Shown here: positions 1 to 27,645 of the stretch, piece by piece
Layout: every line of letters begins with the position of its first letter
How positions within the stretch are numbered: position 1 is the stretch's first letter
NCBI GenBank assembly: GCA_934646965.1
Contig: CAKUEZ010000001.1
Coordinates: forward strand, 1-61,293
DNA: 61,293 nucleotides
Origin: an uncultured Collinsella sp.
GTDB lineage: Bacteria; Actinomycetota; Coriobacteriia; Coriobacteriales; Coriobacteriaceae
Direction of reading: 5' to 3'
Position numbers and translations under genes: made by a program
Notes under the pieces: generated by a model
Told to the model about the DNA's origin: nothing
Databases searched by the model: none
What the model saw: only the letters and a program-made list of their open reading frames with translations

Positions 1-758
1 CGGGTGAGCATCTCGGGCGCGGCATATGCCGGCGTGGCATAGCGCCAAATGTCGGCGCGCTGCGTGAGCGTGTCGCTGCCCAGGGCCGGAACCGAGGAGC
101 CCATGTCGACCAGGCACGGCTTAAACGCCAACGCCTGCACCTGCTCCTCGATGCCAAATTCGTTGGTGCGAAACATGATGTTCGCGGGGGACAGGTCGCG
201 GTGCACGAGCGGCGTCTCGAGATTTTGAGTCGACAGCAAGGTCCCCAGCACGGCGCAGCCTATCGAGGCGGTGGCGGTGCAGGTTACGCCCTCGCCGTCG
301 TGCGGCAACATGCTGGTCGCTTTGTCGAGCGACGTACCCTCGACCCACTCCATAAGGATGAGCGGCTCGCCTTGGCACGTACCATAGCCGTAGACATGGG
401 GAAATCCGCGCAAGTGCGACACACGGCAGAGGTTACGGTATTCCTCAAAAAGCGCGGCAGTGTTTGCTAGGTGCATGGCGGATTCGTCTGCCGTGCGCGA
501 CGGGGTGCTGGTGCCCAGTGCGCGCACGAGGGCGTTGTCCGAGAGCACCTTGACGGCAAAGCGTTCGGCAGAGGTGTTGTGCGCCATGAGCACGAGACCC
601 GTGTTGCCGTGCGAGGAGCGGTCTGCCGTGACCATGAGCGTCATAAAGCGGCGCTTAGCGAGTTCCTCGTCGGCGGGGTTGACGGGGGCGGCGGTATCGA
701 ACGATTCGAGCTGAAAGAGAGCTGTCGGGGAATCGGGCTGCGGAGTGGTGTCTGCCAT
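1..758 (-). CDS. Ser/Thr protein kinase, N-terminal part (runs off the window)
   Basis: About 252 residues are visible from the ATG at 758; the C-terminus lies beyond base 1. The frame shows a Hanks-type kinase fold: a glycine segment HGNTGLV, the beta-3 lysine in AVKVL, the catalytic loop HRDLSPAN, DMG in place of DFG, and an APE-like segment (YAAPEMLT). It is clearly paralogous to the WG-repeat kinase at 1961-4567: both share EEYRN, the SHLRGFP/SHLKGFP pair, VYGYGT and MEWVEG. It would phosphorylate Ser/Thr on partner proteins, probably FHA-domain neighbours. It follows the FHA gene at 855-1817 on the same strand. A perfect 11-bp-arm palindrome lies 18 nt upstream of its start. What follows the kinase domain cannot be seen. 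Confidence 0.9.
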   Translation of the reverse strand, partial: MADTTPQPDSPTALFQLESFDTAAPVNPADEELAKRRFMTLMVTADRSSHGNTGLVLMAHNTSAERFAVKVLSDNALVRALGTSTPSRTADESAMHLANTAALFEEYRNLCRVSHLRGFPHVYGYGTCQGEPLILMEWVEGTSLDKATSMLPHDGEGVTCTATASIGCAVLGTLLSTQNLETPLVHRDLSPANIMFRTNEFGIEEQVQALAFKPCLVDMGSSVPALGSDTLTQRADIWRYATPAYAAPEMLT

Positions 759-775
759 GGTGACCTTATCTTGTG

Positions 776-799
776 GTGTTGCGTCCACGGACGCAACAC
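776..799. promoter_or_regulatory. Perfect palindrome upstream of the kinase gene
   Basis: Arms GTGTTGCGTCC and its exact complement are separated by 2 nt. The ends TGTTGCG/CGCAACA match the halves of the TGTTGCGCAACA palindrome seen before seven other genes of the island, here pushed apart. It sits 18 nt before the start codon at 758. It may be an operator variant or a leader hairpin; the evidence does not decide. Confidence 0.5.
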
Positions 800-815
800 T
801 TCTTGCCAAATACAC

Positions 816-853
816 GTTGTGCCCGGTTCGCCACATACGGCGCCGGGCACAAC
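816..853 (-). terminator. Hairpin after the FHA gene (no clear U-run)
   Basis: Perfect 11-bp arms (GTTGTGCCCGG and complement) with a 16-nt loop begin directly after the stop codon of the FHA gene at 855. There is no T-rich tail in the gene's direction, so termination is uncertain. It may instead protect the mRNA 3' end. Confidence 0.35.
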
Positions 854-854
854 A

Positions 855-1960: not shown

Positions 1961-4567
1961 CTAGATAATCGCGTCGAATTTGGGCATAACGCGCCAGTCG
2001 CCGGCGTCGTCGAGCACGCCCCATTTGCCGCTATCGTTGTCCTGCACAGGCAAAAAGACGTCGGACGAGGTATAGAAGATATCGCCCATGGCGCGGAACT
2101 TGGGCTCGACTTGCCAAGCGCCGCTCACCGTCGAGCAGCCCCATAGGCCGGTCGCCTGGTCCTTGACGGGAGCCCAGCCGTTGGCGAACTCACGCGCCTC
2201 GGCAAAGGTGGCAGAGAACGCGCGCGTGCCGTCGGGCAGAATATAGCCCCACGAGCCGTCGTCGAACTGTACCGCGGCGCGGTTGCTGGCAAAGCGGCGG
2301 GCTGCCTTAAACTGCGGCTCGATCTTCCACTGGCCGTAGCCGTTGATGTAGCCCCAGGTGGTGCCGTCCTGCGTTGCGGGCCCCAGGCCGTTTGCCGAAT
2401 CCCAGCCGCCCAGGCCCCTAAAGGTCGGCGGCACGTCGTTGCGCTTGCCGGTCTTGATGTAGATGTAGCCCCAGCTGTCCTCTTCGTTGCTCGAGCGGAA
2501 GGGGACAAAGTTGCCCAGCACCATATCGCCCATGGCGTAGTACTTGGCATCGACGATCCATTTGCCCTGGCGGTTGAGCACGCCCCAAAAACTGGTCTGC
2601 GCGTCTTGGGCGACGGCGCCGTAGTCGTTGAAGGGCCGGGTGTCCGAGAACTGCGGCTCGATGGCCCAGTTTCCGTCTTGGTCGATGTAGCCCCACATGC
2701 CGCTCGGGGAATCGAGCGCGGCGGCAAGGCCGGCCCCGTAGAGGCACATGTCGCTGTAGGTCGGTTTGACCTTCCAGGCGCCGGTGTCGTCGATCAAGCC
2801 CCACTTGTCACCGCTTTGGGCGGCATAGCGCATCTCCACGCTTATGCTTTTGGATGACGAAACGTCGTCCGAGGAATCGGAGTCGCTGTTCTTTTTGCTT
2901 TTGGACGAGCTGTCCTCGCTTTTGGCGTCTGTCGCAGCTGCGGTGTCGCTTCCGGTGTCCGAGTTGTGCGTCAGCAGGAAGGCGCCGCCGCCGGCAAGTG
3001 CGGTAAGGGCGAGTCCGCCCGCTGCCAAAAAGGCGCGACGCGAGACGGATGCGGCCGCCTTAGTTGCCGCGACTGCCGCAGGTGCCGCGGGCGCTGCCGA
3101 GGAAAAGCCGGCAGAGGCGGTGGAGGCGGAAGGGCCTGCCGCGGCGCCGCCGAAGATCGCATTTTGCGCGACGGGCGCAGCGGTATCGGCCGCTGAGGAC
3201 ACGGGCACACGCATGCTCGGCGCCGTGGCCGTCGCCGGTGCGGCAGGCATGGACGCGGCGGCCGACACAGCGGCATCGGCGCCATAGGCCGCCCGGGGTG
3301 CCTCGAGCACGACCGGTACGGGCAGGTAAGACGCGCGGTCCTGATGCCCGTTGTCGACCGGAGCGCCTTCGGCAGCAGCATCGGGTACGGCTGCAAACGG
3401 GTCGACCGGAGCGGCGACATTGTCGTTGTCCAGCGGAAACATGACCGGCTGCGCCGTGTCGAACGTGGCCGGCACGGGCTCATCGATACTTGTTCCAGGG
3501 CCAATGTAGGTGGTCTGGGCGTCCATGGCCCTGATGCCCCAGACCGGCTCAGGCGTGGGCCAGTCGCCCAGCTCGCTCGATTGCCAGCGGCGCAGCAGGT
3601 CGAGCATCTGCTCGACGGAGGGACGCTGCTCCTGGTCGACGGCGAGTCCCGCCACGATGATGCTAATGAGCGCCTCATCGGCTGCCGTGCGGGCCTGCGG
3701 CACCTCAAAGGCCGTTTCGGTTTTGACACGGTAGGGCGATGCGGTCCCCAGCGCCTGCAGGTTAAACGGGGTATGGCCACAATACAGCTCGTAGAGCACG
3801 CTCGAGAGCGCATAGATGTCGACGGTGGGACTCAGACGCCTGGCCTCGATGCCCGCGATATCGTGGGTGAGCATCTCGGGCGGCGCGTACTCGGGCGTGC
3901 CGCCGCGCCAGACGTCGGCGCGCACGGTAAACGTGGGGTCGATGGGGTTGAGCGCCGTAGAACTGCCAAAGTCGATGAGGCGGATGTCGAAGTCGAGCGT
4001 GGCGAGCTGGTCTTGGAGCGAGCGCTCGCTCGTGGCGACCATGATGTTGCGCGGCGAGATATCGCGGTGGGCAACGCCGGTGTCCAGGTGCCGTACGTTA
4101 TTGAGGATGGAGAGCACGGCCACGCCGATGGCCGCTACCGCATCGCCGCGCACGCCGCCGTCCTCGTGGGGGAGCTGCGGGGTGATGTGCTTGAGCGTGG
4201 AGCCCTCGACCCATTCCATGACGATGAGCGGCTCGCCGTTGCTGGTGCCGTAGCCGTATACGCGTGGAAAACCCTTAAGGTGCGAGACGGTGAGCTGGTT
4301 GCGATATTCCTCGAACAGCACGGCGCGCATGCCGGCGGCGACGCGCTCGTCCGTGGTGTCGCTCACGTGCAGGCGTTTGATGGCAAAGATCTCGCCGGCG
4401 GTGTTGGTGGCGCGCTGGACTACACCCGTGCCGCCCTGACCGGCCTCGCTTTGGACGAGGAACATCGAGAAGCGGCGGCGAGACTCGTCGCGCTTGGCGG
4501 GATCAAAGGCAACCGCGGGCTCAAACGTATCGAGTACGATGAGCTCCTGCTGTCCTTGATTGTCCAT
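1961..4567 (-). CDS. Transmembrane Ser/Thr kinase with eight C-terminal WG repeats
   Basis: The protein is 868 residues. The start at 4567 has AAGGGGGCG upstream. The kinase domain covers about residues 35-330, with AIKRL, HRDISPRN (near 164), DFGSS and TPEYAPPEM. A 150-residue Ala/Pro-rich linker follows, then a hydrophobic segment near residues 509-532 that begins SRRAFLAAGG, which resembles a Tat signal motif but is internal. A Ser/Asp/Lys-rich stretch leads to eight WG repeats (WGLIDD, WGYIDQ, WGVLNR, WGYIYI, WGYING, WGYILP, WGCSTV, WGVLDD; about 575-868). WG repeats form beta-rich ligand-binding modules. I infer an inside-kinase, outside-sensor receptor. It is transcribed away from the zinc-ribbon gene at 4794. 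Confidence 0.92.
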   Translation of the reverse strand: MDNQGQQELIVLDTFEPAVAFDPAKRDESRRRFSMFLVQSEAGQGGTGVVQRATNTAGEIFAIKRLHVSDTTDERVAAGMRAVLFEEYRNQLTVSHLKGFPRVYGYGTSNGEPLIVMEWVEGSTLKHITPQLPHEDGGVRGDAVAAIGVAVLSILNNVRHLDTGVAHRDISPRNIMVATSERSLQDQLATLDFDIRLIDFGSSTALNPIDPTFTVRADVWRGGTPEYAPPEMLTHDIAGIEARRLSPTVDIYALSSVLYELYCGHTPFNLQALGTASPYRVKTETAFEVPQARTAADEALISIIVAGLAVDQEQRPSVEQMLDLLRRWQSSELGDWPTPEPVWGIRAMDAQTTYIGPGTSIDEPVPATFDTAQPVMFPLDNDNVAAPVDPFAAVPDAAAEGAPVDNGHQDRASYLPVPVVLEAPRAAYGADAAVSAAASMPAAPATATAPSMRVPVSSAADTAAPVAQNAIFGGAAAGPSASTASAGFSSAAPAAPAAVAATKAAASVSRRAFLAAGGLALTALAGGGAFLLTHNSDTGSDTAAATDAKSEDSSSKSKKNSDSDSSDDVSSSKSISVEMRYAAQSGDKWGLIDDTGAWKVKPTYSDMCLYGAGLAAALDSPSGMWGYIDQDGNWAIEPQFSDTRPFNDYGAVAQDAQTSFWGVLNRQGKWIVDAKYYAMGDMVLGNFVPFRSSNEEDSWGYIYIKTGKRNDVPPTFRGLGGWDSANGLGPATQDGTTWGYINGYGQWKIEPQFKAARRFASNRAAVQFDDGSWGYILPDGTRAFSATFAEAREFANGWAPVKDQATGLWGCSTVSGAWQVEPKFRAMGDIFYTSSDVFLPVQDNDSGKWGVLDDAGDWRVMPKFDAII

Positions 4568-4648
4568 CTTCGCCCCCTTGGGTATCAGTCGTGATGTTGC
4601 GCGGACGGTGACGGTGCGACTGCCGTCCGCTTCCGCGCGCAATGTTCA

Positions 4649-4793: not shown

Positions 4794-5327
4794 ATGGGTT
4801 TTCTTGACGAAATGCAGGCATCGCTCGACCGTACGGCTTCGGATGCCAACCGTGCCCTGCAGGTTAACAGGATCAAGAGCCAGATGAATGACGCCCTTAA
4901 GCGCCGCCAGCAGCTTGCCGGCCAGCTGGGCGCGAGCCTGTACGAGGCGACCAAGGACAACACCGAGCTGCGCCAGGGCCGCGAGGAACTCTACGACGGC
5001 ATCGCCGCGATCGATAACGAGCGCGCCCAGCTTCAGGCCCAGATCGACGAACTCGAGCGCCAGGCGCAGGCCGCTGCCTATGCCACGGCGTTTGTCGATT
5101 GCCCGTTTTGCCATAACCGTCTGCAGCAGTCGTCTATGTTCTGCTCGGGTTGCGGTAAATCCATGGCCGAGATTCAGGCCGAGCTGGCACGCCAGGCGCA
5201 GGCCGCTCCCGTGCCGGTCGAGGCGCAGACTGCCCCTGCCGACGGCGCCGCGACGTGCCCCTCGTGCGGTGCGCCCATTCAGGCGGGCCACGCCTTCTGC
5301 ATGAACTGCGGCCACAAGCTGGCATAA
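4794..5327 (+). CDS. Coiled-coil protein with two C-terminal zinc ribbons
   Basis: The protein is 177 residues, with start ATG 4794 after GAAAGGA. Residues 1-95 are charged and helical with heptad-like spacing, consistent with a coiled coil. Two zinc ribbons follow, each CxxC-x10-CxxC (CPFC...CSGCG near 102-120 and CPSCG...CMNCG near 158-176), joined by an Ala/Gln/Pro linker. No membrane segment or signal peptide is seen, so it is probably cytoplasmic. The same ribbon spacing recurs in seven other proteins of the island. It is divergent from the WG-repeat kinase. Function unknown; the ribbon may be a protein-interaction or oligomerisation module. Confidence 0.85.
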   Translation: MGFLDEMQASLDRTASDANRALQVNRIKSQMNDALKRRQQLAGQLGASLYEATKDNTELRQGREELYDGIAAIDNERAQLQAQIDELERQAQAAAYATAFVDCPFCHNRLQQSSMFCSGCGKSMAEIQAELARQAQAAPVPVEAQTAPADGAATCPSCGAPIQAGHAFCMNCGHKLA

Positions 5328-5387
5328 TCGCCAGCGTTCGACGGCAGTTCAAACAGCGGGGACGAAACCTCAAAAAACATTTTGAAA

Positions 5388-5400
5388 GTTGCGCAACAAC
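5388..5400. promoter_or_regulatory. Island palindrome, site A (GTTGCGCAACAAC)
   Basis: The core GTTGCGCAAC is a perfect palindrome 84 nt upstream of the start at 5484. It is followed by ACTTTTGA and, about 21 nt after the core, a -10-like AATATG. This is one of seven such sites in the window, each before a gene of the signalling island. Confidence 0.7.
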
Positions 5401-5483
5401 TTTTGAGCGATAGCGGTGAATATGGTCGTGCGGACCTCAAAGGTCTGCACGACCTGTTGTTTAACCCCAAGGAGGTACCCGAT

Positions 5484-6380
5484 ATGTTCTGTCCCGGTTG
5501 TGGCGCCAAGATCGACGACGGCGCTCGTTTCTGCCCTGTTTGCGGCCAACAGATCCAGGCGGCGACCGCTGCCCCTGCGCACGCGGCCGCTCCGGCTCAG
5601 CCTCAGCATGCGTCTCAGCCCGCGCCCGCGCCCGCGCCTGCCGCCCAGCCCCAGCCCGCGCCGGCCTTTGCCGCGGCGCCCGCCATGCATGCGGCGGCTC
5701 CTTCCTCTGCCGTGCACCCGGCCCTGTCCATTGCTCGCATCATTCCCTGCGCGCTTGCGGTGATCGCCATCGTGCTGTCGTTTATGCCGTGGTTTAGCAT
5801 CTCGCCCACGGTGGTGCAGGCTTCGAGCTATGCGAGCCAGGGCGCCAATTTCTTGAGCCAGCTTGCCGGCCAGAGCACCGACTATTCGTCGAGCCTGGGC
5901 TTTGACGAGAGTTACAACGTATGGAGCCTGGGCAAGGCCGGCGAGATCGCCGTCACCTACCAGAGCATGCGCGACTCGGCTTCCGACCTTGCCAGCTCGC
6001 TGAGCAGCTCCTACTACGGCGACGACTATTCCGATTCGGGCCGTGGCCATGTCGTGAGCATCACCAACCCCAACTACGGCGAGGTTTCCTCCGGTGGTAT
6101 CGCCTTTATCTCGATGGCCGTCACCGCTTTTTGGGCCCTCGGCATGCTTGCCTCGATCGCCGGCATCGTGCTCTACCTCACCCAGGGCCTCAAGGTCGTG
6201 CTGCCCGCCGGCTGCGGCCTTATGACGCTTTCTGTCTTGGCCTTTGAGCTGCTCTACGCCAGCTCCATGAGCGCAATCGGCTCTGCGACCAGCACCCCCG
6301 TCTTTATGGCGCTGTTCGCCATCGCCGGCGCCGTGCTTACCTTTGTGCTGCGCGAGCAGGCTGCCCCGGTGGCCCGCTAG
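5484..6380 (+). CDS. Zinc-ribbon membrane protein, four predicted TM segments
   Basis: The protein is 298 residues. The start at 5484 is set by AAGGAGG eight nt upstream and because it places the ribbon at the very N-terminus, as in its paralogues. Cys 3, 6, 17 and 20 form CxxC-x10-CxxC. An Ala/Pro/Gln-rich linker (about 28-75) leads to four hydrophobic segments: near 80-105, then a roughly 100-residue extracytoplasmic loop, then three closely spaced helices to the C-terminus. It resembles the product at 20759-21676 in layout. Role unknown; it may tether a cytoplasmic ribbon to a membrane sensor. A terminator follows. Confidence 0.88.
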   Translation: MFCPGCGAKIDDGARFCPVCGQQIQAATAAPAHAAAPAQPQHASQPAPAPAPAAQPQPAPAFAAAPAMHAAAPSSAVHPALSIARIIPCALAVIAIVLSFMPWFSISPTVVQASSYASQGANFLSQLAGQSTDYSSSLGFDESYNVWSLGKAGEIAVTYQSMRDSASDLASSLSSSYYGDDYSDSGRGHVVSITNPNYGEVSSGGIAFISMAVTAFWALGMLASIAGIVLYLTQGLKVVLPAGCGLMTLSVLAFELLYASSMSAIGSATSTPVFMALFAIAGAVLTFVLREQAAPVAR

Positions 6381-6533: not shown

Positions 6534-6591
6534 ACATTTGAGTTTTTGCCTTCATGGTAGTGGTAGCAAAGAAAGGTAGGTGCTTAACAAG

Positions 6592-7665
6592 ATGGATCAG
6601 ACGACCGAGAACAAGAACATCGCGACGGCTCCGATCGACGCGAAGGTTCGGATGATCGCCAGGCTGGCCGGCGTCGACGGCCTCAAGCTCGTCACGAGCG
6701 CGCCGGGCGGCTCGCAGGTCTTTGTCGGTTCCTGCACGGCAGACGGCCTGCGCGGCACCTCGTGTTCGTTCAAGCTCATCCGTGGCGATATCGTCCACCT
6801 GCGTCGCCAGGAGGATTTCTTCCGCCGCGTTTTGGACGTGCAGGCCGATGCCGGCGGCACCCTTACGCCGTCCTCGCACGGTCTGGCCCGCGTGCTCTTC
6901 CACGAGCTCGTCGCCCTTCCCGGCGACGATACCGTCCTTGCCGTGGTGACCGTCATGGTTCCGGGCGTGTCGTTTGCCGACGTGGTGCGCACCTGCGCCA
7001 CGGGCGTTCGCAGCCTCTCGTTTGCCCAGACGCTGCTGCTGGTGTCCTCGTGCTTTGGCGCGCTGGCGCGGGCCCAGGAGGCGTTTGACGGAGCGTTTGT
7101 CCACCAGGACCTTAAACCCTCCAATATCGTGTTCGAGAGCGACCCGTTCGATCTGGCGGCCGACCTTTTGGGCGAGATTCCCCAGGCCGCCCTTATCGAC
7201 CTGGACTATTCGTTTTTGGACGAGGAGGGCGCCTACTGGGCCAGCCCGCACGGGACGCCGGGGTACCTTGCGCCCGAGTTGCTGATGGGCGAGGGCGAGG
7301 CCCGTCGCGCCCAGCCCGCCTCCGACGTGTTCTCGCTCGGCGTCCTTGCCCACGAGGCGCTCTGCGGCAGCCTGCCATATTTGGCGGGCGCTCCCGAGGC
7401 CGGTGCATGCGGCAACGCCTGGAAGGGCTTTTTCGAGGCCTGCCGGAGCGCGGGGGCGAGCGCCATCGCGGTGGACGAGGAGCTTCCCGACGACGTCCGC
7501 AGCGCCATCCTGGCCTGCCTGGCGGAAGACCCGGCTGCCCGGCCTTTGGCATCGCAGGCGGCCGTCGCGTTTGACGATCTTGCCCGTCGCCATGTGCGGC
7601 TTAAGGGCGATTTTGTCGGGGATCGGCACGTGATGGATGTGGTGACACCGGTCACGCTGCTGTAG
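6592..7665 (+). CDS. Atypical Ser/Thr protein kinase
   Basis: The protein is 357 residues from ATG 6592; an in-frame GTG at 6580 is the alternative, as GAAAGGTAGG lies between. It is a kinase-fold protein with changed signatures: no convincing glycine-rich loop, the lysine in SFKLIRG, HQDLKPSN (Gln for Arg; near residue 171), DLD in place of DFG, then GTPGYLAPELL and SDVFSLG. The catalytic Asp and metal-binding Asp are both present, so activity is possible, though weak or specialised. There is no TM segment, so it is probably cytoplasmic. It is a single-gene unit behind site B, followed by a short GC palindrome (7669-7684) without a U-run. A partial paralogue of the other island kinases. Confidence 0.85.
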   Translation: MDQTTENKNIATAPIDAKVRMIARLAGVDGLKLVTSAPGGSQVFVGSCTADGLRGTSCSFKLIRGDIVHLRRQEDFFRRVLDVQADAGGTLTPSSHGLARVLFHELVALPGDDTVLAVVTVMVPGVSFADVVRTCATGVRSLSFAQTLLLVSSCFGALARAQEAFDGAFVHQDLKPSNIVFESDPFDLAADLLGEIPQAALIDLDYSFLDEEGAYWASPHGTPGYLAPELLMGEGEARRAQPASDVFSLGVLAHEALCGSLPYLAGAPEAGACGNAWKGFFEACRSAGASAIAVDEELPDDVRSAILACLAEDPAARPLASQAAVAFDDLARRHVRLKGDFVGDRHVMDVVTPVTLL

Positions 7666-7712
7666 GGGCCGCCGACCGGCGGCAACGTTGAGTTACTGGA
7701 CTGTTCCCAAGG

Positions 7713-7724: not shown

Positions 7725-7784
7725 GTAGGGGAACACGGCGACCTCTAGAGTTGAGGTTTCCGGGGGAGTTAGGGAAGGGGCCTC

Positions 7785-8786
7785 ATGGCGAGTTCCTCTC
7801 AGGTTTGCGATTGTGTTCACGAGCACGGCTGGGACAGTGCGTTCTATCGCTTTGCCGAGACCATCAGGGACCTGACGTGCGGCGGCTGCAACCACAAGCA
7901 CATCTACGCGCTCGTGGGCACCCGCGGCAGGTACATCAACCACACAAACCCCATTGTGCGCAAGCGCACCGCGGCGGCTCTTTCGCGCCTTATGCACTCG
8001 AGCCGCTATGCGGCCGACATGCGCAAGGGCTACGCCGACGACAGCTCGGTGTTCTCGCGAGCGGCGGCTTCGCTTATCGACATGCTGCGCAATGCGACCG
8101 ACCTGGACGATGCGGGGCTGTTCGATTTTGTGCTCCACACGTCGTGGCCCGAGCTGCTGCGCGGCTTGGAGAGCGAGCGTCGTGCCGGTCGCGAGATCGA
8201 TCCGCTGCGTATGGCGTGCGAATCGCGCGAGGTCGTGCGCTGGGGCGAGCAGCAGACCGCTTGCGGACGCGCCCCGCTCGCTGAGCTCTTGGCGGCGTGC
8301 TTTCGCACCATGGCTTTTGGCTGCCTGGACGATCGCTTTGCCCGCACGCTGTGCTCCCGTACGCCCCAGGAACTCCAGGAGCCGCCCGATACGGGCGACG
8401 GGCGGGCGCAGGACGGCGCCTGCCTGGTTCGCGTGGCCGACGGTGACGGCCCTTGCGTCTTGGGCATGTGGTGCGTGGACGCGGATCGGCCTTTCTCGAT
8501 CGGTCGGTTTAGCAGCTGCGATGCGATCGAGGCCGACCCGGTGGTCTCGCGTCTGCACTGTCGTGTGTTCATGCTCGACGGCACCTGGTTTTTAGAGGAT
8601 GGCGGAAGCACCCACGGCACACGCGTCCTGCGCGATGCGGGCGGAGGCCCCGCCTGCGTCTTCGATAGCGGGGAGGGCGACGGGCCGCGGACGTTCCCGC
8701 TGGAGTTTGGCGACCGCATTGTACTCGCCGGCCGGAGTACCTATTGGTTTTGCGCGCGCGACGCGCATGTTCTGACGATTGGTTAG
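7785..8786 (+). CDS. FHA-domain protein with variant binding loop
   Basis: The protein is 333 residues. The N-terminal 215 residues are unrecognised; they carry a Cys/His cluster near residues 7-45 (CDC, CGGC, HKH). The C-terminal FHA domain shows [15 protein letters not shown] and GSTHGT. The usual GSTNGT Asn is His here, which could alter pThr recognition. It is the first gene of an operon that continues through a second FHA protein, PP2C phosphatase, kinase, TM repeat protein and surface protein. The stop codon is 4 nt before the next start. No signal peptide or TM seen. Confidence 0.87.
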
Positions 8787-8790
8787 CGAA

Positions 8791-19627: not shown

Positions 19628-19654
19628 GGCGCCCAGCGCCGGAAAGGACCCATC

Positions 19655-20664: not shown

Positions 20665-20758
20665 CTTTTGAATTTTTGGGTGGATGATTCTAATCGTCAA
20701 TGGTGTTCGAGCGGACGCGGGATCGAGCCCAGCCGCTCCCTTAAGAAAGGGGAATGAT

Positions 20759-21676
20759 ATGTTCTGTCCTCACTGTGGTTCCCAGCAGCCCGATGGCGCC
20801 GTCTTTTGCGGCAACTGCGGCCAGTCTATGGTCGGCGCTCCTTCCGCGCCTCAAGCGGCTCCCGTCCGCCAGGCCCCGGCTCCGCAGCAGTTTGCTCCGC
20901 AGCCCGCGCCGGCGCAGCAGCCGTTCGCTCAGCCCGCGCCTGCCGCACATCACGGCTTTGGCGACGCCGGCTCCAGCTTTCAGAGCACGCTGACGGCGGC
21001 TACGGGCTTTGGCAAGCGCTCCCTCGCCATGCTGGGCGGCGCCGTGGCCTCCTTCGTGTGCATGTTCCAGCCGTGGATCGCTATGCCTTGGATCGACAAG
21101 GCGCTCGGCTATGCCGCTAACCAGGCTGGCTCCGATAACTACGGACTCAACCAGACGGCGATCACCTCGGCCAAGGCGCTTGTTAACAGCGCGTTCGACA
21201 TGCCGCATGTGTTTAGCCTCTCCGGTGCGCTGCGCGGCCTTTCTACGGGTGTTAACAATCTGGCGATGCAGATTACCTCGTATGACACCTCGGCGGCCGC
21301 TCAGGCTCAACAGGCCGCCAGCTCTCTCGGTCTGGTCGCCAATGTCCTCACCATTCTCTTTGTGCTGTGGGTTGCCTGTGTGGTGGCTATGATCGCCGGC
21401 GTTGTGATTAAGTTCCTCAAGAAGCAGGATGTTGTCCTGTTTGCCAGCCTCGGCGCCTCTGCAGTTCTTTCGCTTGTATGCATCATCGGCGCGCTGGTGG
21501 CAAACGGCCAGATTGACGGTGCGCTGACCCAGATGCTCGCGTCGAGCGGCGGTTCGAGCGCTTTTGCCGTCATTACGACCATCAAGCCGTTCCTGGCCCC
21601 GGCATATGGTGCCGTCCTTACGCTGGTCTTCTCGATCGCCGGCTTGGTGAGCGCCTTCGTCCTCAAGGAGGACTAA
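20759..21676 (+). CDS. Zinc-ribbon membrane protein, four predicted TM segments
   Basis: The protein is 305 residues. ATG 20759 follows AAGAAAGGGG and puts the ribbon (Cys 3, 6, 17, 20) at the N-terminus. A Pro/Gln/Ala linker is followed by a first TM segment near 85-110, an extracytoplasmic loop of about 90 residues, and three more hydrophobic helices to the C-terminus. Architecture and length match the product at 5484-6380, so they are probably paralogues. Unknown function; possibly a membrane subunit that senses envelope state and presents a ribbon to cytoplasmic partners. Single-gene unit between site D and a terminator. Confidence 0.87.
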   Translation: MFCPHCGSQQPDGAVFCGNCGQSMVGAPSAPQAAPVRQAPAPQQFAPQPAPAQQPFAQPAPAAHHGFGDAGSSFQSTLTAATGFGKRSLAMLGGAVASFVCMFQPWIAMPWIDKALGYAANQAGSDNYGLNQTAITSAKALVNSAFDMPHVFSLSGALRGLSTGVNNLAMQITSYDTSAAAQAQQAASSLGLVANVLTILFVLWVACVVAMIAGVVIKFLKKQDVVLFASLGASAVLSLVCIIGALVANGQIDGALTQMLASSGGSSAFAVITTIKPFLAPAYGAVLTLVFSIAGLVSAFVLKED

Positions 21677-21734
21677 TTTCGTCGATACGCCTGCCGGCGG
21701 GCAAGACTCGGCCCCGCTTACAGGAGACTATCGT

Positions 21735-21764
21735 AGGCCCTGCGGATCTTCCGCGGGGCCTTTT
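21735..21764 (+). terminator. Intrinsic terminator
   Basis: Ten-bp stem GGCCCTGCGG / CCGCGGGGCC (one G-U) with loop ATCTT and TTTT tail, after the gene at 20759-21676. Confidence 0.88.
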
Positions 21765-21779
21765 GCTATGAGGTGACAA

Positions 21780-21791
21780 TTGTTGCGCAAC
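21780..21791. promoter_or_regulatory. Island palindrome, site E (TTGTTGCGCAAC)
   Basis: The core GTTGCGCAAC is 60 nt before the start at 21851; a -10-like TACACT follows 20 nt after the core. Confidence 0.7.
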
Positions 21792-21850
21792 GTTGTTGGC
21801 GGGGCGCGGGTTACACTCTGAGTAACGGAATTGTTGTAAGGGAGAACCTT

Positions 21851-23065
21851 ATGTTTTGCACTAAATGCGGTTCGTACGTGCCCGACGGCCAGCACTTCTG
21901 CACCAGCTGCGGCGCCCCTATGGAGGAGTTTGGGCCCGTTGATGCCGCTCCGGCGCAGCCGACGTACCAGCAGCCTGGTCAGACGCAGCAGGGCTATGGA
22001 CAGCCTGCTTCTGTAACGGGCGCCAGCGACTTGCCGCCCTATATGCCGCCGGTCGACGTACCGGGTGCCTATGACATGGGTGCGAACGCGCCTGGTCTGC
22101 AGCGCCCTAAAAAGAACGGTAAGAAGGCTGCGCTGATCACCGTCGGCGTGCTTGCGGCTATCCTTGCGGGCGGCGGTGCCGGCTATTACTTTGGTGTGTA
22201 TCGCCCGCAGCAGGCCGAGCTCGAGCGCATCGAAAAGAAGAAGGAAGAAGAGGCCGTCAAGCACTCCAGGCACCCGGTGCGCATCACGGCGACCGGCATG
22301 CAGTGGGATACCGATACCGGCGCCACCAAGCTGCCGGTGCACGTGACGGGAACCGACGTTGACGGCAAGGACGTCGACACGGTCTTTTACGTCGACAGCG
22401 ACGGCAACGGTATCAAGCTCATGCAGGGCAGCTACAGCCTTACGGTTGCCGCTTCGCCCCTGGGCGCCGACGGCGAGATTTGGGATATCCCCAACGTTTC
22501 GGTGAGCATTAAGCTGGGCGACGCGCTCAAAAAGGACGAGAAGCTCGACCTGCGCGAGAATGCCAAGTTTGAGCTCGGCGATCCGGTGAACGCCGTGGAT
22601 GTCGAGCCCGGCGAGATCACCATGGCGCAGAATTACGCGCGTCAGGGCGGATGCGACGACAAGGACGAGGCCGATCGCCTGGCCGGTCTGGCCTCCTCGG
22701 CGCGCAACGGCGCGGTCGCGAGCTATAACGCGGCCGTCTCGGAGGCGAGCCGCAAGAGCCGCACCTACGACGGCGATGTGTTTACGTTCGAGGTCCCCGA
22801 GGACTGGGGGAGCGACTGGGACGTCAAGACCTCGCAGGGCTCGTACAGCGGCGTCAAGAACGGCCTGTGGGTTGATTACAAGATTGTCCACGACGGCTAT
22901 ACGGTGGGAACGCTCATGATCTCCAATCACTACAACTCGGGATTCAACACGATTGGCAAGACGGGCAACGTGGGTAAATCGACTAACTTGTGGCTCGGGT
23001 CGTACGACTCGCTTTCGGGCGACTCCGACTGGGAGTACATCATCGATTCGATCTACATTAAGTAG
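21851..23065 (+). CDS. Zinc-ribbon, single-TM protein with unknown ectodomain
   Basis: The protein is 404 residues, start ATG 21851 after AAGGGAGAA. Ribbon Cys 3, 6, 17, 20; Gln/Pro-rich linker; TM helix near 88-112 preceded by KKNGKKA. The outside part has a short helical stretch (QQAELERIEKKKEEE), a beta-rich segment with a THVTGTDVDG-like strand pattern, and a C-terminal domain that starts VFTFEVPEDWG and ends YIIDSIYIK. That last domain resembles lipoprotein-like 'PEDW' folds, which I cannot name with confidence. It shares the inside-ribbon, outside-domain plan with the products at 18014, 23229 and 26287. Function not known. Confidence 0.85.
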   Translation: MFCTKCGSYVPDGQHFCTSCGAPMEEFGPVDAAPAQPTYQQPGQTQQGYGQPASVTGASDLPPYMPPVDVPGAYDMGANAPGLQRPKKNGKKAALITVGVLAAILAGGGAGYYFGVYRPQQAELERIEKKKEEEAVKHSRHPVRITATGMQWDTDTGATKLPVHVTGTDVDGKDVDTVFYVDSDGNGIKLMQGSYSLTVAASPLGADGEIWDIPNVSVSIKLGDALKKDEKLDLRENAKFELGDPVNAVDVEPGEITMAQNYARQGGCDDKDEADRLAGLASSARNGAVASYNAAVSEASRKSRTYDGDVFTFEVPEDWGSDWDVKTSQGSYSGVKNGLWVDYKIVHDGYTVGTLMISNHYNSGFNTIGKTGNVGKSTNLWLGSYDSLSGDSDWEYIIDSIYIK

Positions 23066-23087
23066 CCGACGTCTTTTGGCTTGGATG

Positions 23088-23124
23088 CGGGCTGTGCGTA
23101 GGGTTTGCGCACGGCCCGTTTTTT
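23088..23124 (+). terminator. Intrinsic terminator
   Basis: Stem CGGGCTGTGCG / CGCACGGCCCG (one G-U) followed by TTTTTT; it ends the gene at 21851-23065. Confidence 0.87.
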
Positions 23125-23163
23125 GTACTGGCGATGCGTGCTGTGAGGGAGTGCCCTTTACAG

Positions 23164-23200
23164 AAAAGCGCCCGTTTCTCTGGTGGAAACGGGCGCTTTT
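23164..23200. terminator. Bidirectional terminator between convergent genes
   Basis: A perfect 15-bp stem (AAAAGCGCCCGTTTC and complement) with A- and T-runs on both sides, between the convergent genes ending at 23065 (+) and 23229 (-). Confidence 0.9.
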
Positions 23201-23228
23201 GCTTGCGATGAGGCTGTGTCGCTCGGCG

Positions 23229-25700
23229 TTACTCGTCGACGTCGGTGAACTCGGTGGGCGGGACGGAGTCCGTGGAGTCGCCGTAGTCGTCGGAATCGTC
23301 GTAGCTGTCGTCGTAGTCGGAGTCATCGGAGTCGTAGTCCGAATCGTCGGAGTCGTCGTAGCTGTACGACTTGCTGGAGCTGCTCGACTTGCTGGACTTG
23401 CTCGACTTTTTGCTGGAGCTCGACTTGCTGTCGGACGAGTCACTCGACTTGCTGCCACTCGGATTGGCGTCGGAATCGGTGCCGCTGATCTTGGTAGTGA
23501 GGACCATGAGCGTCTGCTCGACGGTATCGACCGTGTTGTTGAGGTTGAGCTTGGAGGTGTCAATTGCGTTCTCCGGAGCGGTGGCGTCCTGGTCTTCCAG
23601 GTTGTCGCTGTAGCCCTTGATGAGGAAGGCGCTCTGGTCGTCGAAGTTGTCGCCGTGAAGCTCGCCCTCGGCAGCCTTAAATTCGGTGCCGTCGTACGTG
23701 AAGTACTTAGGCTCGGCATCGTCACCAACGAGGACTGCGGTGTCGTCTGCCACGAGCTGAGGCAGATAGACGTGGTTGCCTGTGTCGCCGATCATGGTCT
23801 TAAAGGTCACAAAGACGTAGCCGCCGTTGGAGGCCTCCGGCGAGCCGCTGTAGAGGTTGACGACCTTCTTGCCGTTGTAGCCCCACACGTCCAAGACGTA
23901 ATCGCCGTTCGAAAGGCGCGTCTTCTTGTTGAAGGACTTCGCCTTGGTCTTGGAGTGGACGGTCACGAGCTCCTCGAGTCCGTCGCCGTTAAAGTCGACG
24001 AGCTGGGCAAACTGGACGCCGCCGATCTGGTAGTCGCTCGAGCCAGTCGAGACGAGCTCGGGCTCACCGTACTTCTTGATCAGGCTGTTGAGCTTGCTCT
24101 TATAGGCCGTGCAGGCCGCCTTGTACGTCGCGTCGTCAATCGTGGCGGGCGCGGAGGTGTCGACGGTGTCCTTGGACGTGTCGGTCTTTTTGTCCGTCTT
24201 CTTGTCGGACTTGCTGGGCTTGGAGCTGCTCGTGCTATCGCTCGACGTGCTCGAATCGTCCTCGGACGTGGAGTCGTCCGTGCTCGTGGAGTCTTCGCTG
24301 GCGTCATCCTTGGAGGTCGTGCTCGAGGAATCGTTGCTGTTGTCCGTGCTGCTCGACGCGTCGTCATCCTTCTTGGGGGTGTTGACGGTCACGCTCTCGA
24401 CGGGCTTTTCGGCACTGGCGTCGTCCTTCTTGACCACGGTGGTGTTGAAGTTTTGGACCGTGTTGCCCTTGGTGTCCTCGATCTTGCAGCTGTAGTCGCC
24501 GGGCTTGACCTTGCCAAAGTCGCCGATGGTAAAGCCGTCATCGCCCTTGACCTTGATCTTGTAGCTCTTGCCGCCGTTCTTAGGCGTAAGGGTCGCGGTG
24601 TAGCTGTGGATCACGCGGTCCTTCTTTTTGGGCAGGACCTTGGTGTCGACCGTGCACACGACGGCGTCCTGGCTGCCCGAGGTGATCTCGACGGCGTTGG
24701 CGTTGGGCGTGAGCAGCAGGATGGCTGCCACGGCGGCGCCGGCGGCGACCAGGCCGAGGCCCGCGAAGACCGGCCAACGGCGCTTCTTTTGCTGCGGCTG
24801 CTGGGGCATGGGCATTTGCGGTTGGGGCTGGGGCTGCGGGATGGGCGCTGCCTGCATGGTGGTGTCGGTCACCTGCTGCTGGGGCAGGTCGACGACGGTG
24901 GCGCCGGCTGTGGGGTGAGCCACGCCAAGCGACTCCATGGCCTCGGCGGTTGCCTGGGCGTCTTCGTCGAACTCGGCGATGGTGGTGGGGTCGTCGTTGA
25001 CGTTGACGAGTGTGGTGGGGTCGTCGGCGACGGCGGCAGGCTCGGCTGTATCGTCGCCGGGGAAGGCGACGGCGACGGCTGCGTTGTCGTCGGTCTCGAA
25101 GATTTCCTCGGCTTCGGCGGCGCCAACGGGCGCGGCGTCGTCGATGACGACGGGCTCGGCGGCCGGCTCGGAGTCGGTTGCGGACTCGGCATTGGCAGTC
25201 TGCTCGGCCGCGGGCTCAACGGTATCGAGCGTGACGACCGTCTCACCGGGGTCGGTCTGATCAGCTTGAGGCTCGGCGGTGTCTGTCGGAGCGTCCGACT
25301 CCGGGTCAGCGGCGTCGAGTGTGACGACGGTCTCGCCCGGGTCGACGGGCGCCGGGGTAGATGCTTCGGCTTCGGTATTGGCCGAGGGCTCGACGGCGTC
25401 GAGGGTCACCACGGTCTCGCCGGGATCTGCATCGACAGCGTCCAGCGTGACGACCGTCTCGCCGGGGTCGGTGACGGTCTCGGGTGCAGGTGCGGGCTCG
25501 GACGTCGGCTCAACGGCATCGAGCGTAACGACGGTCTCACCCGGATCAACGGCGGGCGCCTCGGCGGGTGCCGGTTTAGTGGTCTGTGTCTCGGCGGGCG
25601 CCGGAGCCTGGGTTGCTGTCTTGGGCGCTACGGACGCTCCGCAATTGGTGCAAAAGCGCGCGTCGTCAGGCAGCTTCGTTCCGCATTGCGTACAAAACAT
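23229..25700 (-). CDS. Zinc-ribbon transmembrane protein with five GETVVTLD repeats
   Basis: The protein is 823 residues from ATG 25700. Ribbon Cys 3, 6, 17, 20. Residues about 45-290 are acidic and Pro/Thr-rich and contain five copies of DPGETVVTLD plus DDPTTIAEFD and GATVVDLP. A TM helix lies near 305-328 (KKRRWP before it). Outside there is a beta-rich segment, a Ser/Thr/Asp/Lys linker of about 75 residues, a domain with VDFNGDGLEELV (a Ca-binding, FG-GAP-like motif), and a very Ser/Asp/Lys-rich tail. The cytoplasmic Thr repeats look like tandem kinase targets; the ectodomain could bind a ligand. Only island gene on the minus strand after 5 kb; site F lies upstream. Confidence 0.85.
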   Translation of the reverse strand: MFCTQCGTKLPDDARFCTNCGASVAPKTATQAPAPAETQTTKPAPAEAPAVDPGETVVTLDAVEPTSEPAPAPETVTDPGETVVTLDAVDADPGETVVTLDAVEPSANTEAEASTPAPVDPGETVVTLDAADPESDAPTDTAEPQADQTDPGETVVTLDTVEPAAEQTANAESATDSEPAAEPVVIDDAAPVGAAEAEEIFETDDNAAVAVAFPGDDTAEPAAVADDPTTLVNVNDDPTTIAEFDEDAQATAEAMESLGVAHPTAGATVVDLPQQQVTDTTMQAAPIPQPQPQPQMPMPQQPQQKKRRWPVFAGLGLVAAGAAVAAILLLTPNANAVEITSGSQDAVVCTVDTKVLPKKKDRVIHSYTATLTPKNGGKSYKIKVKGDDGFTIGDFGKVKPGDYSCKIEDTKGNTVQNFNTTVVKKDDASAEKPVESVTVNTPKKDDDASSSTDNSNDSSSTTSKDDASEDSTSTDDSTSEDDSSTSSDSTSSSKPSKSDKKTDKKTDTSKDTVDTSAPATIDDATYKAACTAYKSKLNSLIKKYGEPELVSTGSSDYQIGGVQFAQLVDFNGDGLEELVTVHSKTKAKSFNKKTRLSNGDYVLDVWGYNGKKVVNLYSGSPEASNGGYVFVTFKTMIGDTGNHVYLPQLVADDTAVLVGDDAEPKYFTYDGTEFKAAEGELHGDNFDDQSAFLIKGYSDNLEDQDATAPENAIDTSKLNLNNTVDTVEQTLMVLTTKISGTDSDANPSGSKSSDSSDSKSSSSKKSSKSSKSSSSSKSYSYDDSDDSDYDSDDSDYDDSYDDSDDYGDSTDSVPPTEFTDVDE

Positions 25701-25769
25701 AAGGTGAGCTCCCTTCTTTTAGGTGTTTCTTAGGTTCGAATCTATGGTACCTGCGGTATAGGGCAAAGT

Positions 25770-25781
25770 TGTTGCGCAACA
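25770..25781. promoter_or_regulatory. Island palindrome, site F (TGTTGCGCAACA)
   Basis: A perfect 12-nt palindrome 70 nt upstream of the minus-strand start at 25700. On the minus strand it is followed by ACTTTGCC and a -10-like CATAGA 24 nt after the core. Confidence 0.75.
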
Positions 25782-25834
25782 GTGCGAAAAACCTTCGGAC
25801 GACGCCAATAGTGGTGTTCATGTGTACGGATTCC

Positions 25835-26133
25835 GTCTCGATCTGTAACACCTGGGTGGGATTTCAACCTCTACCTGTTACAGATCAAGATTGTTCTCCA
25901 CCCAACACATCAAACATCTCAATCTGTAACAGTAAGGACCCGTTTTGCTTAGTAGATGTTACAGATCGAGATATTGTCCGGACGATGTCTCAAATGTCTA
26001 AATCTGTAACATCTAGACGAGAAATTGACCTCTACTTGTTACAGATCGAGATGTTTGCTCATAGGGCTGATGGTCTGTCTTGATCTGTAACAACTGGACC
26101 TGATTTTGCCCCGTAGACGTTACTGATCGAGAC
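25835..26133. repeat. Array of four 55-57-nt palindromic units, 79-82-bp period
   Basis: Units lie at 25835-25890, 25917-25971, 25996-26051 and 26077-26133. Each starts (G)TCTnnATCTGTAACA and ends TGTTACAGATCnAGA, giving a 15-bp stem around a 24-26-nt loop. Loops are related but not identical: several share a TAGAC-like start and GTAGA-like end. Unit starts are 82, 79 and 81 bp apart. The fourth unit has a mutated right arm (TTACTGAT). Some inter-unit stretches share TTGTCCGG. Two more units lie at 27684-27819, on the other side of the gene at 26287. Confidence 0.9.
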
Positions 26134-26173
26134 AAAACCTGCTGTTGACGGCCGGAAGTCTGCTGTTCGGCAA

Positions 26174-26184
26174 TGTTGCGCAAC
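26174..26184. promoter_or_regulatory. Island palindrome, site G (TGTTGCGCAAC)
   Basis: The core GTTGCGCAAC is 103 nt before the start at 26287; a -10-like CATATG follows 18 nt after the core. Confidence 0.65.
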
Positions 26185-26286
26185 GTCTTGGACAAAACCT
26201 CTCATATGCTTGCGCCAAGAAGAAATTGGGGAGCTTGCCGGGATCTTTGTTTGTGCGGCGGCTCTGCATTGTTGAGGGGAGATGCC

Positions 26287-27645
26287 ATGAGGTGCTCAAG
26301 TTGCGGTAGTGAGCTGGTGTCGGGCACGATATTTTGTCCGATTTGCGGCGCTCAGGTCATGGATCAGGGTTTTGACGAGCCGATGGCGAATACTGCCGAT
26401 TATGCTCAGCAGTATTGGGACCAGTCGCAGGCTCAGCCGGAACAGCGGTACTGGGCTCAACCTCAGCAGTTCCAGTCGGATTCTGCTCCGGCCCCCATAC
26501 CGATGGCTCCCGCCAAGAAACCCCGTCGAGGAAAGAAAGTCGCCGCAGGTCTGGCCATCGCTGCCGTCGTTATTGCCGTGGGTGTCGGCGGCTTTGCGGG
26601 ATTCTCGTTCTGGCAGAAGGCTCAGCACCAAAAGATGGTAGATCAGGTGACTGCGGCAGTCGAAAAGACGGTGGACGAGCAGTATGGCGAGAGCTTTGGC
26701 GGTTTTGTTTCCAATGACTATGTGAATCCCTCGACGTACAAGGTCAAATCCGTCAAGGTGAGCAACGTGACGGAGAACAATGGCTTGGTGAGTGGTTCGG
26801 CCGAGGCCGTTACGGCGAACCGCAGTTTCCGCTCGACGATGGGCTTCACGTTTACCGGTGTTAAGGGATCGGGCGACACGATTTCGAACGTGACCTTAAA
26901 ACTCAACGATAAGTCGACTGAGCCCAAGAGGGGCATCGACTTTGACGAGGAAAACGGCCTGAAGGATCTGGATCCCGAGTTTGACGCCTGGTCATGCACA
27001 GTGAAGCAGGAGATTCCGGACGGCGCGCCTTGGTACTACGATGCGTCGTACCATCAGGAGTATTCGTACGGATTCGATGAGGACGAGGGATGGTATTTCT
27101 CGGATTCTGGTTGTTACGACGATGACGGCGACTCGGATCCTATGCTCGATATCTCTGGTACCTACGAGGACTCCGGTGGTGCTAGCACGCCCGACGTCTA
27201 CCTCAAGATTTCAAACTATGACGAGGATGAGGGGACCATTTCCGTTGAGCTTTCGACGGACTATTCGCTTTCGAGGAAGAATCTGAGCGGGCGCATGGTC
27301 TTTAGGAAAGACGATATTGAGCTCGAGGACATCGACGACAGCGGCTATAAAGGATTTAGGATTGGCGGGGGTGGCGGCCTGGTAACCAGCCCCGAAGAAA
27401 TTACCGGTGCGGAAGCGGGCGACGCGGCTCTGGTGTTTGTGCTGAACCCTTCGGCATCTGGCGGGATCAACGTGTACAAGGGTGGTAACGAGGGCCTTTC
27501 GGTGCAGACGGGTTACGGCAAAGCGGGGCGCTACACCCTTCCTGTCGTGACTGAGGTCACAGGCGGCATGATGAGCGGGCTTTCGAAGTTTAGCGCGTGG
27601 TCGTTCGAGAACAACAGACCTGCGCCGCAGTTCGTGAAGGAGTAG
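26287..27645 (+). CDS. Zinc-ribbon, single-TM protein flanked by palindrome arrays
   Basis: The protein is 452 residues. ATG 26287 has GAGGGGAG upstream and places the ribbon (Cys 3, 6, 17, 20; MRCSSCG...FCPICG) first. A Gln/Tyr/Pro linker and KKPRRGKK precede a TM helix near 82-105. The ectodomain starts with a helical DUF-like segment (QVTAAVEKTVDEQYG), then an acidic Tyr/Asp-rich middle and a C-terminal beta-rich part (GKAGRYTLPVVTEV). Sampled GC (about 45-55%) is lower than in neighbouring genes, and array units lie on both sides, so it may be a later arrival. Same plan as the other ribbon receptors; function unknown. Confidence 0.84.
   Translation: MRCSSCGSELVSGTIFCPICGAQVMDQGFDEPMANTADYAQQYWDQSQAQPEQRYWAQPQQFQSDSAPAPIPMAPAKKPRRGKKVAAGLAIAAVVIAVGVGGFAGFSFWQKAQHQKMVDQVTAAVEKTVDEQYGESFGGFVSNDYVNPSTYKVKSVKVSNVTENNGLVSGSAEAVTANRSFRSTMGFTFTGVKGSGDTISNVTLKLNDKSTEPKRGIDFDEENGLKDLDPEFDAWSCTVKQEIPDGAPWYYDASYHQEYSYGFDEDEGWYFSDSGCYDDDGDSDPMLDISGTYEDSGGASTPDVYLKISNYDEDEGTISVELSTDYSLSRKNLSGRMVFRKDDIELEDIDDSGYKGFRIGGGGGLVTSPEEITGAEAGDAALVFVLNPSASGGINVYKGGNEGLSVQTGYGKAGRYTLPVVTEVTGGMMSGLSKFSAWSFENNRPAPQFVKE

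What the first reader, a model, noticed from the sequence alone, without database searches (positions are those of the whole stretch)
1..27645. A kinase, phosphatase, FHA and zinc-ribbon signalling island
Seen: four Ser/Thr kinases, one PP2C phosphatase, four FHA proteins, eight zinc-ribbon proteins, a nine-repeat Thr scaffold and a 1345-residue surface protein in 28 kb, with almost no other gene types. One protein (19655-20578) carries both the ribbon and FHA domain, linking the two families. Known: PP2C, kinase and FHA proteins form phospho-switches in PknB/PstP/GarA systems. Inferred: this is a self-contained envelope-sensing phospho-network in which ribbon proteins with varied ectodomains act as receptors or kinase adaptors. 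I know of no described system with this composition.
Basis: partly seen in the sequence, partly recalled or inferred. Interest (0 to 1): 0.9.

Follow-up and report, generated by a model that had tools for sequence, protein, structure and literature searches.

The report
Phospho-switch module of a secretion system
A gut Collinsella carries a gene block in which a membrane kinase, a phosphatase, a repeat scaffold and phosphothreonine-binding proteins look like the control unit of a recently described variant of the type VII protein-secretion machine, with the scaffold's repeats looking like a row of switchable docking sites.

Summary
In detail: four kinases, one PP2C, four FHA and eight zinc-ribbon proteins, a nine-repeat scaffold and a 1345-aa surface protein lie in 1-27645. 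Window 6580-20578 is a nine-gene block kept in order in Collinsella tanakaei and in genome G303, where it runs straight into WXG100 and EssC. Its FHA-PP2C-kinase-scaffold-giant core is widespread in Bacillota, within 30 kb of WXG100 genes in 18 of 30 WXG100-positive genomes, 0.94 expected, and matches components J, F, D, H, I of the T7SSd/T7SSe secretion systems (PMC11217815). Seemingly new: the H protein is an array of Thr-x-[V/I/L]-Leu motifs, almost never Ser (322 vs 9), the kind of site FHA domains read; and the J protein's DUF6382-like domain is predicted to be a pseudokinase resembling MviN and YukC/EssB. No EssC or WXG100 gene was found in the window. Most ribbons and the left-hand kinases lie outside the conserved block, in a strain-variable hotspot. 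Phosphorylation and docking are untested.

The parts
6580..7665 (+). K3: Ser/Thr kinase domain protein; first gene of the conserved nine-gene block
   Evidence: Pfam Pkinase 3e-16; 37% to L113:14-1033, 34% to the G303 copy
7785..8786 (+). FHA2: FHA protein, unknown N-terminal domain
   Evidence: Pfam FHA 1.9e-9; 51% in C. tanakaei; 41% in G303
8779..10266 (+). FHA3 = TsxJ-like: predicted pseudokinase domain (DUF6382-like), Pro/Glu-rich linker with four T-x-[VIL]-L motifs, C-terminal FHA
   Evidence: FHA 6.5e-14, DUF6382 0.014 below cut-off; AF2 pLDDT 92 and Foldseek matches to MviN and YukC; motifs
10309..11196 (+). PP2C = TsxF-like phosphatase
   Evidence: PP2C_2 9.4e-8; 74% in C. tanakaei; 35-49% (best segment) in the 79 other loci, Bacillota by their titles
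11200..12948 (+). K4 = TsxD-like: active-looking kinase, long helix 282-334 that includes the TM, outside helical hairpins 339-574
12961..13866 (+). SCAF = TsxH-like: N-terminal TM, nine T-x-[VIL]-L repeats, C-terminal VVHT motif
13381..13731 (+). Repeat array: Thr at residues 141,155,169,183,198,212,226,240,254 of SCAF
   Evidence: tandem repeats within 13377-13712
9367..9744 (+). Four T-x-[VIL]-L motifs in the FHA3 linker (Thr 197, 208, 228, 319)
13884..17921 (+). SURF = TsxI-like: signal-like start, Ig-like, C-terminal TM and KKRK tail; residues about 700-1345 conserved in Bacillota giants
18014..19627 (+). ZR3: zinc ribbon, TM, C-terminal domain; in the conserved block
   Evidence: 23.5% in C. 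tanakaei, 29% over 222 aa in G303
19655..20578 (+). ZRFHA: zinc ribbon, linker, FHA; last gene of the conserved block; directly before WXG100 in G303
1961..4642 (-). K2WG: kinase with WG-repeat C-terminal region; outside the conserved block
   Evidence: relatives at two other places of the C. tanakaei genome
855..2024 (-). FHA1: FHA protein; a K1-FHA1-like pair sits beside DEAD in several relatives
3..836 (-). K1: kinase, cut by the window edge
4794..6380 (+). ZR1 and ZR2: ribbon proteins left of the block
20684..27645 (.). ZR5-ZR8: ribbon proteins right of the block (23229-25700 on the minus strand), not seen conserved beyond the ribbon region in the loci compared
27683..30352 (+). Start of conserved backbone and DEAD-box helicase: right edge of the variable hotspot
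   Evidence: 91-94% nucleotide identity starts at 27683-27842 in the 12 regions fetched from relatives

Best explanation
Window 6580-20578 is the regulatory and envelope module of a T7SSd/T7SSe-type (EssB-less) type VII secretion system, with Coriobacteriaceae additions (K3, FHA2, ZR3, ZRFHA), lying here in a strain-variable hotspot without its ATPase and WXG100 genes in view. Identity is well supported; the mechanism is inferred. Proposed cycle: the membrane kinase K4, sensing through its outside helical domain and perhaps the giant SURF protein, phosphorylates the Thr of the T-x-[V/I/L]-Leu repeats of the membrane-anchored scaffold SCAF. FHA domains of FHA3, ZRFHA, FHA2 and, where present, EssC dock on that array; FHA3 also carries the same motifs, so it can cross-link, and its pseudokinase domain may do what the EssB pseudokinase does in T7SSb (bind the ATPase's FHA part). 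Multi-site docking would gather the ATPase at the SURF/SCAF complex and switch secretion on; PP2C resets it. Shown: gene order, homology, motif statistics, Thr-over-Ser preference, predicted folds. Inferred: phosphorylation, docking, gating.
For: Collinear block in C. tanakaei beside EssC, WXG100, LXG and a weak YukD match; in G303 the same nine genes run on one strand into WXG100-EssC-DUF4176-LXG-YukD. WXG100 within 30 kb of PP2C in 18 of 30 WXG100-positive genomes (49 of the 80 locus genomes searched), 0.94 expected. EssC present in 11 of 11 downstream regions fetched, which were chosen for having WXG100 there. EssB/YukC over cut-off in only 3 of 49 module genomes, not on the module's contig. 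SCAF motifs: T in motif 322 of 921 Thr, S 9 of 785 Ser, Fisher p 8e-86; median 6 per protein in 63, 4 with none; 339 observed vs 21.6 expected in 62. FHA proteins beside PP2C: 105 observed vs 21.9 expected in 63. FHA3 N-domain: Foldseek best match MviN kinase-homology domain 3uqc (E 3.8e-5), YukC/EssB 6z0f at rank 5 (E 7.5e-5). Component match to PMC11217815.
Confidence: 0.66

Rival explanations
1. Self-contained envelope-stress phospho-network: kinases sense the envelope through SURF and the ribbon proteins and act on cell-wall or metabolic targets, not on secretion.
For: No T7SS machine genes found in the window; 19 of 49 module genomes have no WXG100 match; G113 module without visible T7SS.
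Against: Strong physical linkage to WXG100/EssC; EssC itself carries FHA; most ribbon proteins are not part of the conserved block.
Confidence: 0.17
2. Decaying remnant: an ancestral T7SS of the tanakaei/G303 type lost its machine genes here and the regulatory half persists without function.
For: WXG100 and EssC are absent at the place right after ZRFHA where G303 has them.
Against: All nine genes are long open frames with third-position GC above second-position GC; the PP2C protein cluster P0001 (98% identical) holds 617 member sequences; the nine repeats are regularly spaced.
Confidence: 0.1
3. A canonical PknB/PstP/GarA-type growth-control system duplicated into an island.
For: K4 kinase domain is PknB-like; kinase, PP2C and FHA are the same parts list.
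Against: A separate kinase-FHA-FHA-PP2C cluster of the canonical kind lies elsewhere in C. tanakaei (L115; reading as canonical is by recall); K4 has no PASTA match and matches the PASTA-kinase NCBIfam model only over its kinase part, below cut-off; scaffold and giant protein match T7SSd/e components.
Confidence: 0.05

Closest known systems
T7SSd (Actinomycetota, e.g. Olsenella uli; Garrett, Higginson and Palmer 2024, PMC11217815: abstract, section 9 and passages read)
   Same: D kinase (kinase-TM-helical), H single-TM protein, I giant Ig-like protein with signal peptide and C-terminal TM; an Actinomycetota host
   Different: T7SSd is defined without phosphatase F, DUF6382-FHA J and ubiquitin-like B; the window block has F and J, and the related C. 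tanakaei and G303 loci have a YukD-like gene as well; A and C are not in the window; extra K3, FHA2, ZR3, ZRFHA. The word Collinsella does not occur in that paper's main text.
T7SSe / T7SSj (Bacillota; same paper)
   Same: Have F phosphatase, J DUF6382-FHA, D and I (and H in T7SSe); FHA-PP2C-kinase-scaffold-giant order in most of the 12 Bacillota loci laid out here
   Different: Reported only from Bacillota; T7SSe always has a second WXG100 (A2) and K, not identified here; the passages read name no ribbon proteins, K3 or FHA2
T7SSb EssB/YukC-EssC pair (PMC9600267, passages read)
   Same: A pseudokinase that works with FHA domains; the FHA3 N-domain model matches YukC 6z0f
   Different: There the FHA-pseudokinase contact is taken to be phosphorylation-independent; here a kinase, a phosphatase and Thr repeats are present, and EssB has no match over cut-off in 46 of 49 module genomes
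Mycobacterial MviN (Rv3910) pseudokinase with FhaA FHA domain (PDB 3oun title; biology recalled)
   Same: Pseudokinase plus FHA phospho-docking beside a PknB-type kinase
   Different: Cell-wall role, separate proteins; here pseudokinase and FHA are fused and linked to secretion genes
GarA/PknB/PstP phospho-switch (recalled)
   Same: Kinase, PP2C, FHA protein with its own Thr site
   Different: No multi-repeat membrane scaffold or giant surface protein

Membership tests
T7SSd | TsdA WXG100 and TsdC ATPase genes at the locus | tested here: not met
   Not found in the 61-kb window; met at the collinear loci of C. tanakaei and G303; the window's genome beyond its ends could not be searched
T7SSd | D: kinase-TM-extracytoplasmic helical protein | tested here: met
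   K4
T7SSd | H: single TM helix plus unstructured cytoplasmic part | tested here: met
   SCAF, (TM and disorder read from sequence, not predicted)
T7SSd | I: giant protein, N-terminal signal peptide, Ig-like domains, C-terminal TM | tested here: met
   SURF; signal and TM by eye; conserved C-terminal half
T7SSd | Only five core parts, no F, J or B | tested here: not met
   PP2C and FHA3 present; YukD-like gene in C. tanakaei (Pfam 0.0032, below cut-off) and its 60% homologue in G303
T7SSe | F phosphatase and J DUF6382-FHA | tested here: met
   PP2C; FHA3: DUF6382 E 0.014 is below the Pfam cut-off, but the C. tanakaei T7SS copy is 1.1e-7 and the window fold is predicted
T7SSe | Found in Bacillota only; second WXG100 A2 | tested here: not met
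   Coriobacteriia host; one WXG100 match in the C. tanakaei genome
T7SSb | EssB/YukC present | tested here: not met
   PF10140: no match in the C. tanakaei genome (G001); over cut-off in 3 of 49 module genomes, on other contigs than the module
PknB/PstP/GarA system | PASTA kinase in the cell-division cluster | tested here: not met
   No PASTA match in K4; separate cluster in C. tanakaei
FHA phospho-docking scaffold | Thr (not Ser) motif with +3 hydrophobic residue, repeated | tested here: met
FHA phospho-docking scaffold | Phosphorylation and FHA binding shown | not testable with these tools
   needs biochemistry
YukC/EssB-like pseudokinase | Kinase fold without catalytic residues | tested here: inconclusive
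   Fold predicted at pLDDT 92 and matches kinases; no sequence link to EssB by hhalign; ordinary kinases score as high by VIA-align

The most novel reading that the evidence does not exclude
TsxH proteins are variable-length phosphothreonine docking arrays that, when loaded by the TsxD kinase, gather FHA-bearing ATPases and pseudokinase-FHA linkers into a multivalent membrane assembly that turns a type VII secretion system on; the pseudokinase-FHA protein replaces EssB, so phosphorylation gates in these systems what is a fixed pseudokinase-FHA contact in T7SSb. In the Collinsella lineage of the window the module may have been freed from the machine and reused as a stand-alone surface-signalling unit.
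Probability: 0.4. Interest if true: 0.78.

Novelty: new variant of a known kind. Interest (0 to 1): 0.57.

Why it matters
The 2024 paper proposes that T7SSd/e-type systems may be run by Thr phosphorylation; section 9 and the passages read name the FHA domains, kinases and phosphatases but no phosphorylated docking protein. The repeat array of TsxH is a concrete, testable candidate, with the number of sites varying from none to 11 in the 63 proteins examined and the kinase, phosphatase and FHA readers encoded beside it. If true it would be a clear case of a multi-site pThr scaffold in bacteria, would link the EssB pseudokinase of T7SSb to a pseudokinase-FHA protein, and would explain a common gene block of gut Clostridia and Collinsella.

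Tried and rejected
K4 or FHA3 as sequence homologues of EssB: hhalign of K4 kinase part, K4 outside part and FHA3 N-domain against three EssB sequences gave probabilities under 2% (the EssB alignment was shallow). K4's outside helices: the rows shown by both fold searches were kinase domains, so that part is untested.

C. difficile CD2148 as an experimental relative: passages of PMC9674922 and PMC8262956 describe a non-PASTA kinase; the word FHA does not occur in either main text, and CD2148-dependent sites were mainly pSer; dropped.

Ribbon proteins as a family of T7SS partners: matches between the loci compared lay around the ribbon, except ZR3 and ZRFHA.

Selection in my own counts: one search kept SCAF rows having either the motif or the C-terminal H[TS] motif (61 loci plus window; L054 and L080 dropped), so, which dropped only L080 (a different gene), is the fairer count. 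The 49 genomes are 49 of 80 loci, chosen mainly for long flanks; 27 of the 30 WXG100-positive ones pass the family cut-off. The 12 Coriobacteriia EssC loci are the highest-scoring 12 after C. tanakaei, of 48 genomes with a match; several regions are cut by contig ends or fetched on one side only, and L188 (G447) gave no listed gene.

Whether the window's species has EssC elsewhere: one search lists EssC clusters 76% and 80% identical to the C. tanakaei copy (128 and 57 members) that could belong to it; undecided.

Papers: brought up PMC11217815. Of 14 papers listed it alone holds T7SSd, T7SSe or DUF6382. The listings showed, by title and start of abstract, no paper on this block or on Thr repeats in TsxH; I opened passages of PMC7159879 and PMC3482391, which treat other kinase/ribbon/FHA settings. 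Supplements could not be read.
Full report
WHAT IS THERE. The window is from a Collinsella: a PP2C relative named Collinsella sp. is 95% identical over 66% of the query (P0014) and the DEAD-box helicase at 27974 is 96-98% identical in 22 of the 43 genomes of the genus searched. No whole genome is held for it. A catalytic-loop motif (HRD-type; HQD in K3, YRD in K4) and an APE-type motif (PPE in K2WG) were found in all four kinases; the pattern for the ATP-binding lysine was not found in K3.

A CONSERVED NINE-GENE BLOCK. In C. tanakaei ET30 (L112, L113) the genes K3, FHA2, FHA3, PP2C, K4, SCAF, SURF, ZR3 and ZRFHA follow one another in the same order and strand (identities 37, 51, 39, 74, 65, 45, 39, 23.5 and 41%); G146 has the same from a K3 fragment to ZRFHA. 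Upstream in C. tanakaei is a type VII secretion locus: WXG100 (1.3e-19), a 1516-aa EssC with FHA and FtsK/SpoIIIE domains, DUF4176, an LXG protein, a weak YukD match (0.0032) and a DUF6382-FHA protein. In G303 the nine genes run on one strand directly into WXG100, EssC, DUF4176, LXG, YukD and a DUF6382-FHA gene (labels by best match to the tanakaei genes). The block is rare in the genus and class: PP2C at E 1e-40 in 2 of 43 genus genomes, at 1e-30 in 2 of 65 family genomes; in 119 class genomes 1 match of 74% identity, the next best being G113 (35%, 2.3e-35), the rest at 3e-28 or weaker; K4 at E 1e-40 in 2 of 119, G001 and G113. EssC matches at E 1e-40 occur in 48 of 396 Coriobacteriia; in the 12 loci fetched, K4-like kinases were seen in 9, SURF-like giants in 10 and PP2C in 3.

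THE CORE IS WIDESPREAD IN BACILLOTA. K4 matches lie beside PP2C in 75 of 80 by tblastn; SURF matches in 39 of 80, many loci being short. The gene after K4 is a small protein with an N-terminal TM-like stretch in 62 loci, SCAF-like. Of 49 such genomes, 30 have WXG100 matches, and in 18 of the 30 one lies within 30 kb of the PP2C gene against 0.94 expected from random placement. All 11 regions fetched downstream, chosen for their WXG100 genes, hold EssC. In Clostridium nigeriense (L069, L122) the order is FHA-PP2C-K4-SCAF-SURF-FHA-TadZ-like-YukD-like-EssC-WXG100-DUF4176, one strand (the TadZ-like and YukD-like labels there are by eye). EssB/YukC passes its cut-off in only 3 of 49 genomes, on contigs other than the module's.

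COMPARISON WITH PRINT. Garrett, Higginson and Palmer 2024 (PMC11217815; abstract, section 9 and passages read, supplements not) describe T7SSd and T7SSe with these parts: D kinase, F phosphatase, H single-TM protein, I giant Ig-like protein, J DUF6382-FHA. T7SSd is said to lack F, J and B; the Collinsella-type locus has F and J, so it fits neither definition fully. [quoted passage not shown] no repeats of H are mentioned in what I read, and the word zinc does not occur in the main text.

THE REPEAT ARRAY. In 63 SCAF proteins (window plus 62 loci) the middle region holds 921 Thr and 785 Ser; 322 Thr but only 9 Ser start a x-[VIL]-Leu motif (Fisher p 8e-86), and 45% of Thr have Leu at +3. Median six motifs, range 0-11, four proteins with none (L010, L047, L054, L066). 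Glu or Asp is the commonest residue at each of positions -1 to -4. These sequences are related, so p-values overstate independence. The window copy has nine, C. tanakaei nine by eye. FHA proteins encoded just before PP2C carry the motif too: 105 against 21.9 expected in 63 proteins, 22 of them individually below 0.05; window FHA3 has four. FHA domains are known to bind pThr rather than pSer and often to read the +3 residue (recalled). Against: G113's SCAF-like protein has none; G303's repeats read P-T-V-V and G348's P-T-L-V; G303 and G395 have at most one canonical motif; G135, G406 and G365 have four, four and three T-T-L-L-type motifs (the G365 count is by eye).

THE SETTING. DNA matching the relatives at 91-94% begins at 27683-27842 in the 12 regions fetched. 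By tblastn a K1-like and FHA1-like pair lies next to DEAD in 8 of the 12, farther off in one (L141), and is absent from three (L139, and the short L134 and L136). In the five laid out, the place beside DEAD differs: empty after a heavy-metal ATPase (G120), the K1-like/FHA1-like pair (G122, G136, G124), or DnaK-, ribbon- and FHA-type genes (G121) (ATPase and DnaK labels by eye). So the island sits in a variable hotspot; the left edge is outside the window. Ribbon proteins are common in C. tanakaei (31 domain matches), so their presence does not define the system.

WHAT IS NOT KNOWN. No T7SS machine genes were found in the window, and what lies left of base 1 is unseen. Phosphorylation, docking and control of secretion are predictions.

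CHECK.

Noticed in passing
L024:8297-9979 and similar N-termini among the 40 rows of alignment A3 (12 by eye): In several Lachnospiraceae-type loci the FHA protein before PP2C is a signal peptide, trypsin-like protease domain (GNSGGP in L024), TM and cytoplasmic TTLL motifs plus FHA: a secreted protease fused to a phospho-reader.
   Followed up: no
L122:1041-2099: A TadZ/CpaE-like ATPase gene (by eye) sits between the FHA and YukD-like genes of a Clostridium nigeriense T7SS locus.
   Followed up: no
L141 (G121, upstream of the DEAD helicase): The same hotspot holds a DnaK-like gene followed by ribbon and FHA1-like genes: another possible phospho/ribbon gene set.
   Followed up: no
window 1961-4642: Kinase with a WG-repeat domain (Pfam 2.1e-29); relatives occur elsewhere in C. 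tanakaei (L115, L117), one beside an FHA1-like gene.
   Followed up: partly
L059:12332-13945, L066:19214-20767, L121:655-2544: A second K4-like kinase lies after SURF in several loci.
   Followed up: no
L122:11092-11538 and 15921-16367: Two 148-aa reading frames with identical printed starts, and their downstream neighbours likewise, at the LXG end of the locus: a repeated cassette.
   Followed up: no
window 36315-39967: Flavin oxidoreductase and iron-only hydrogenase genes side by side, outside the island.
   Followed up: no
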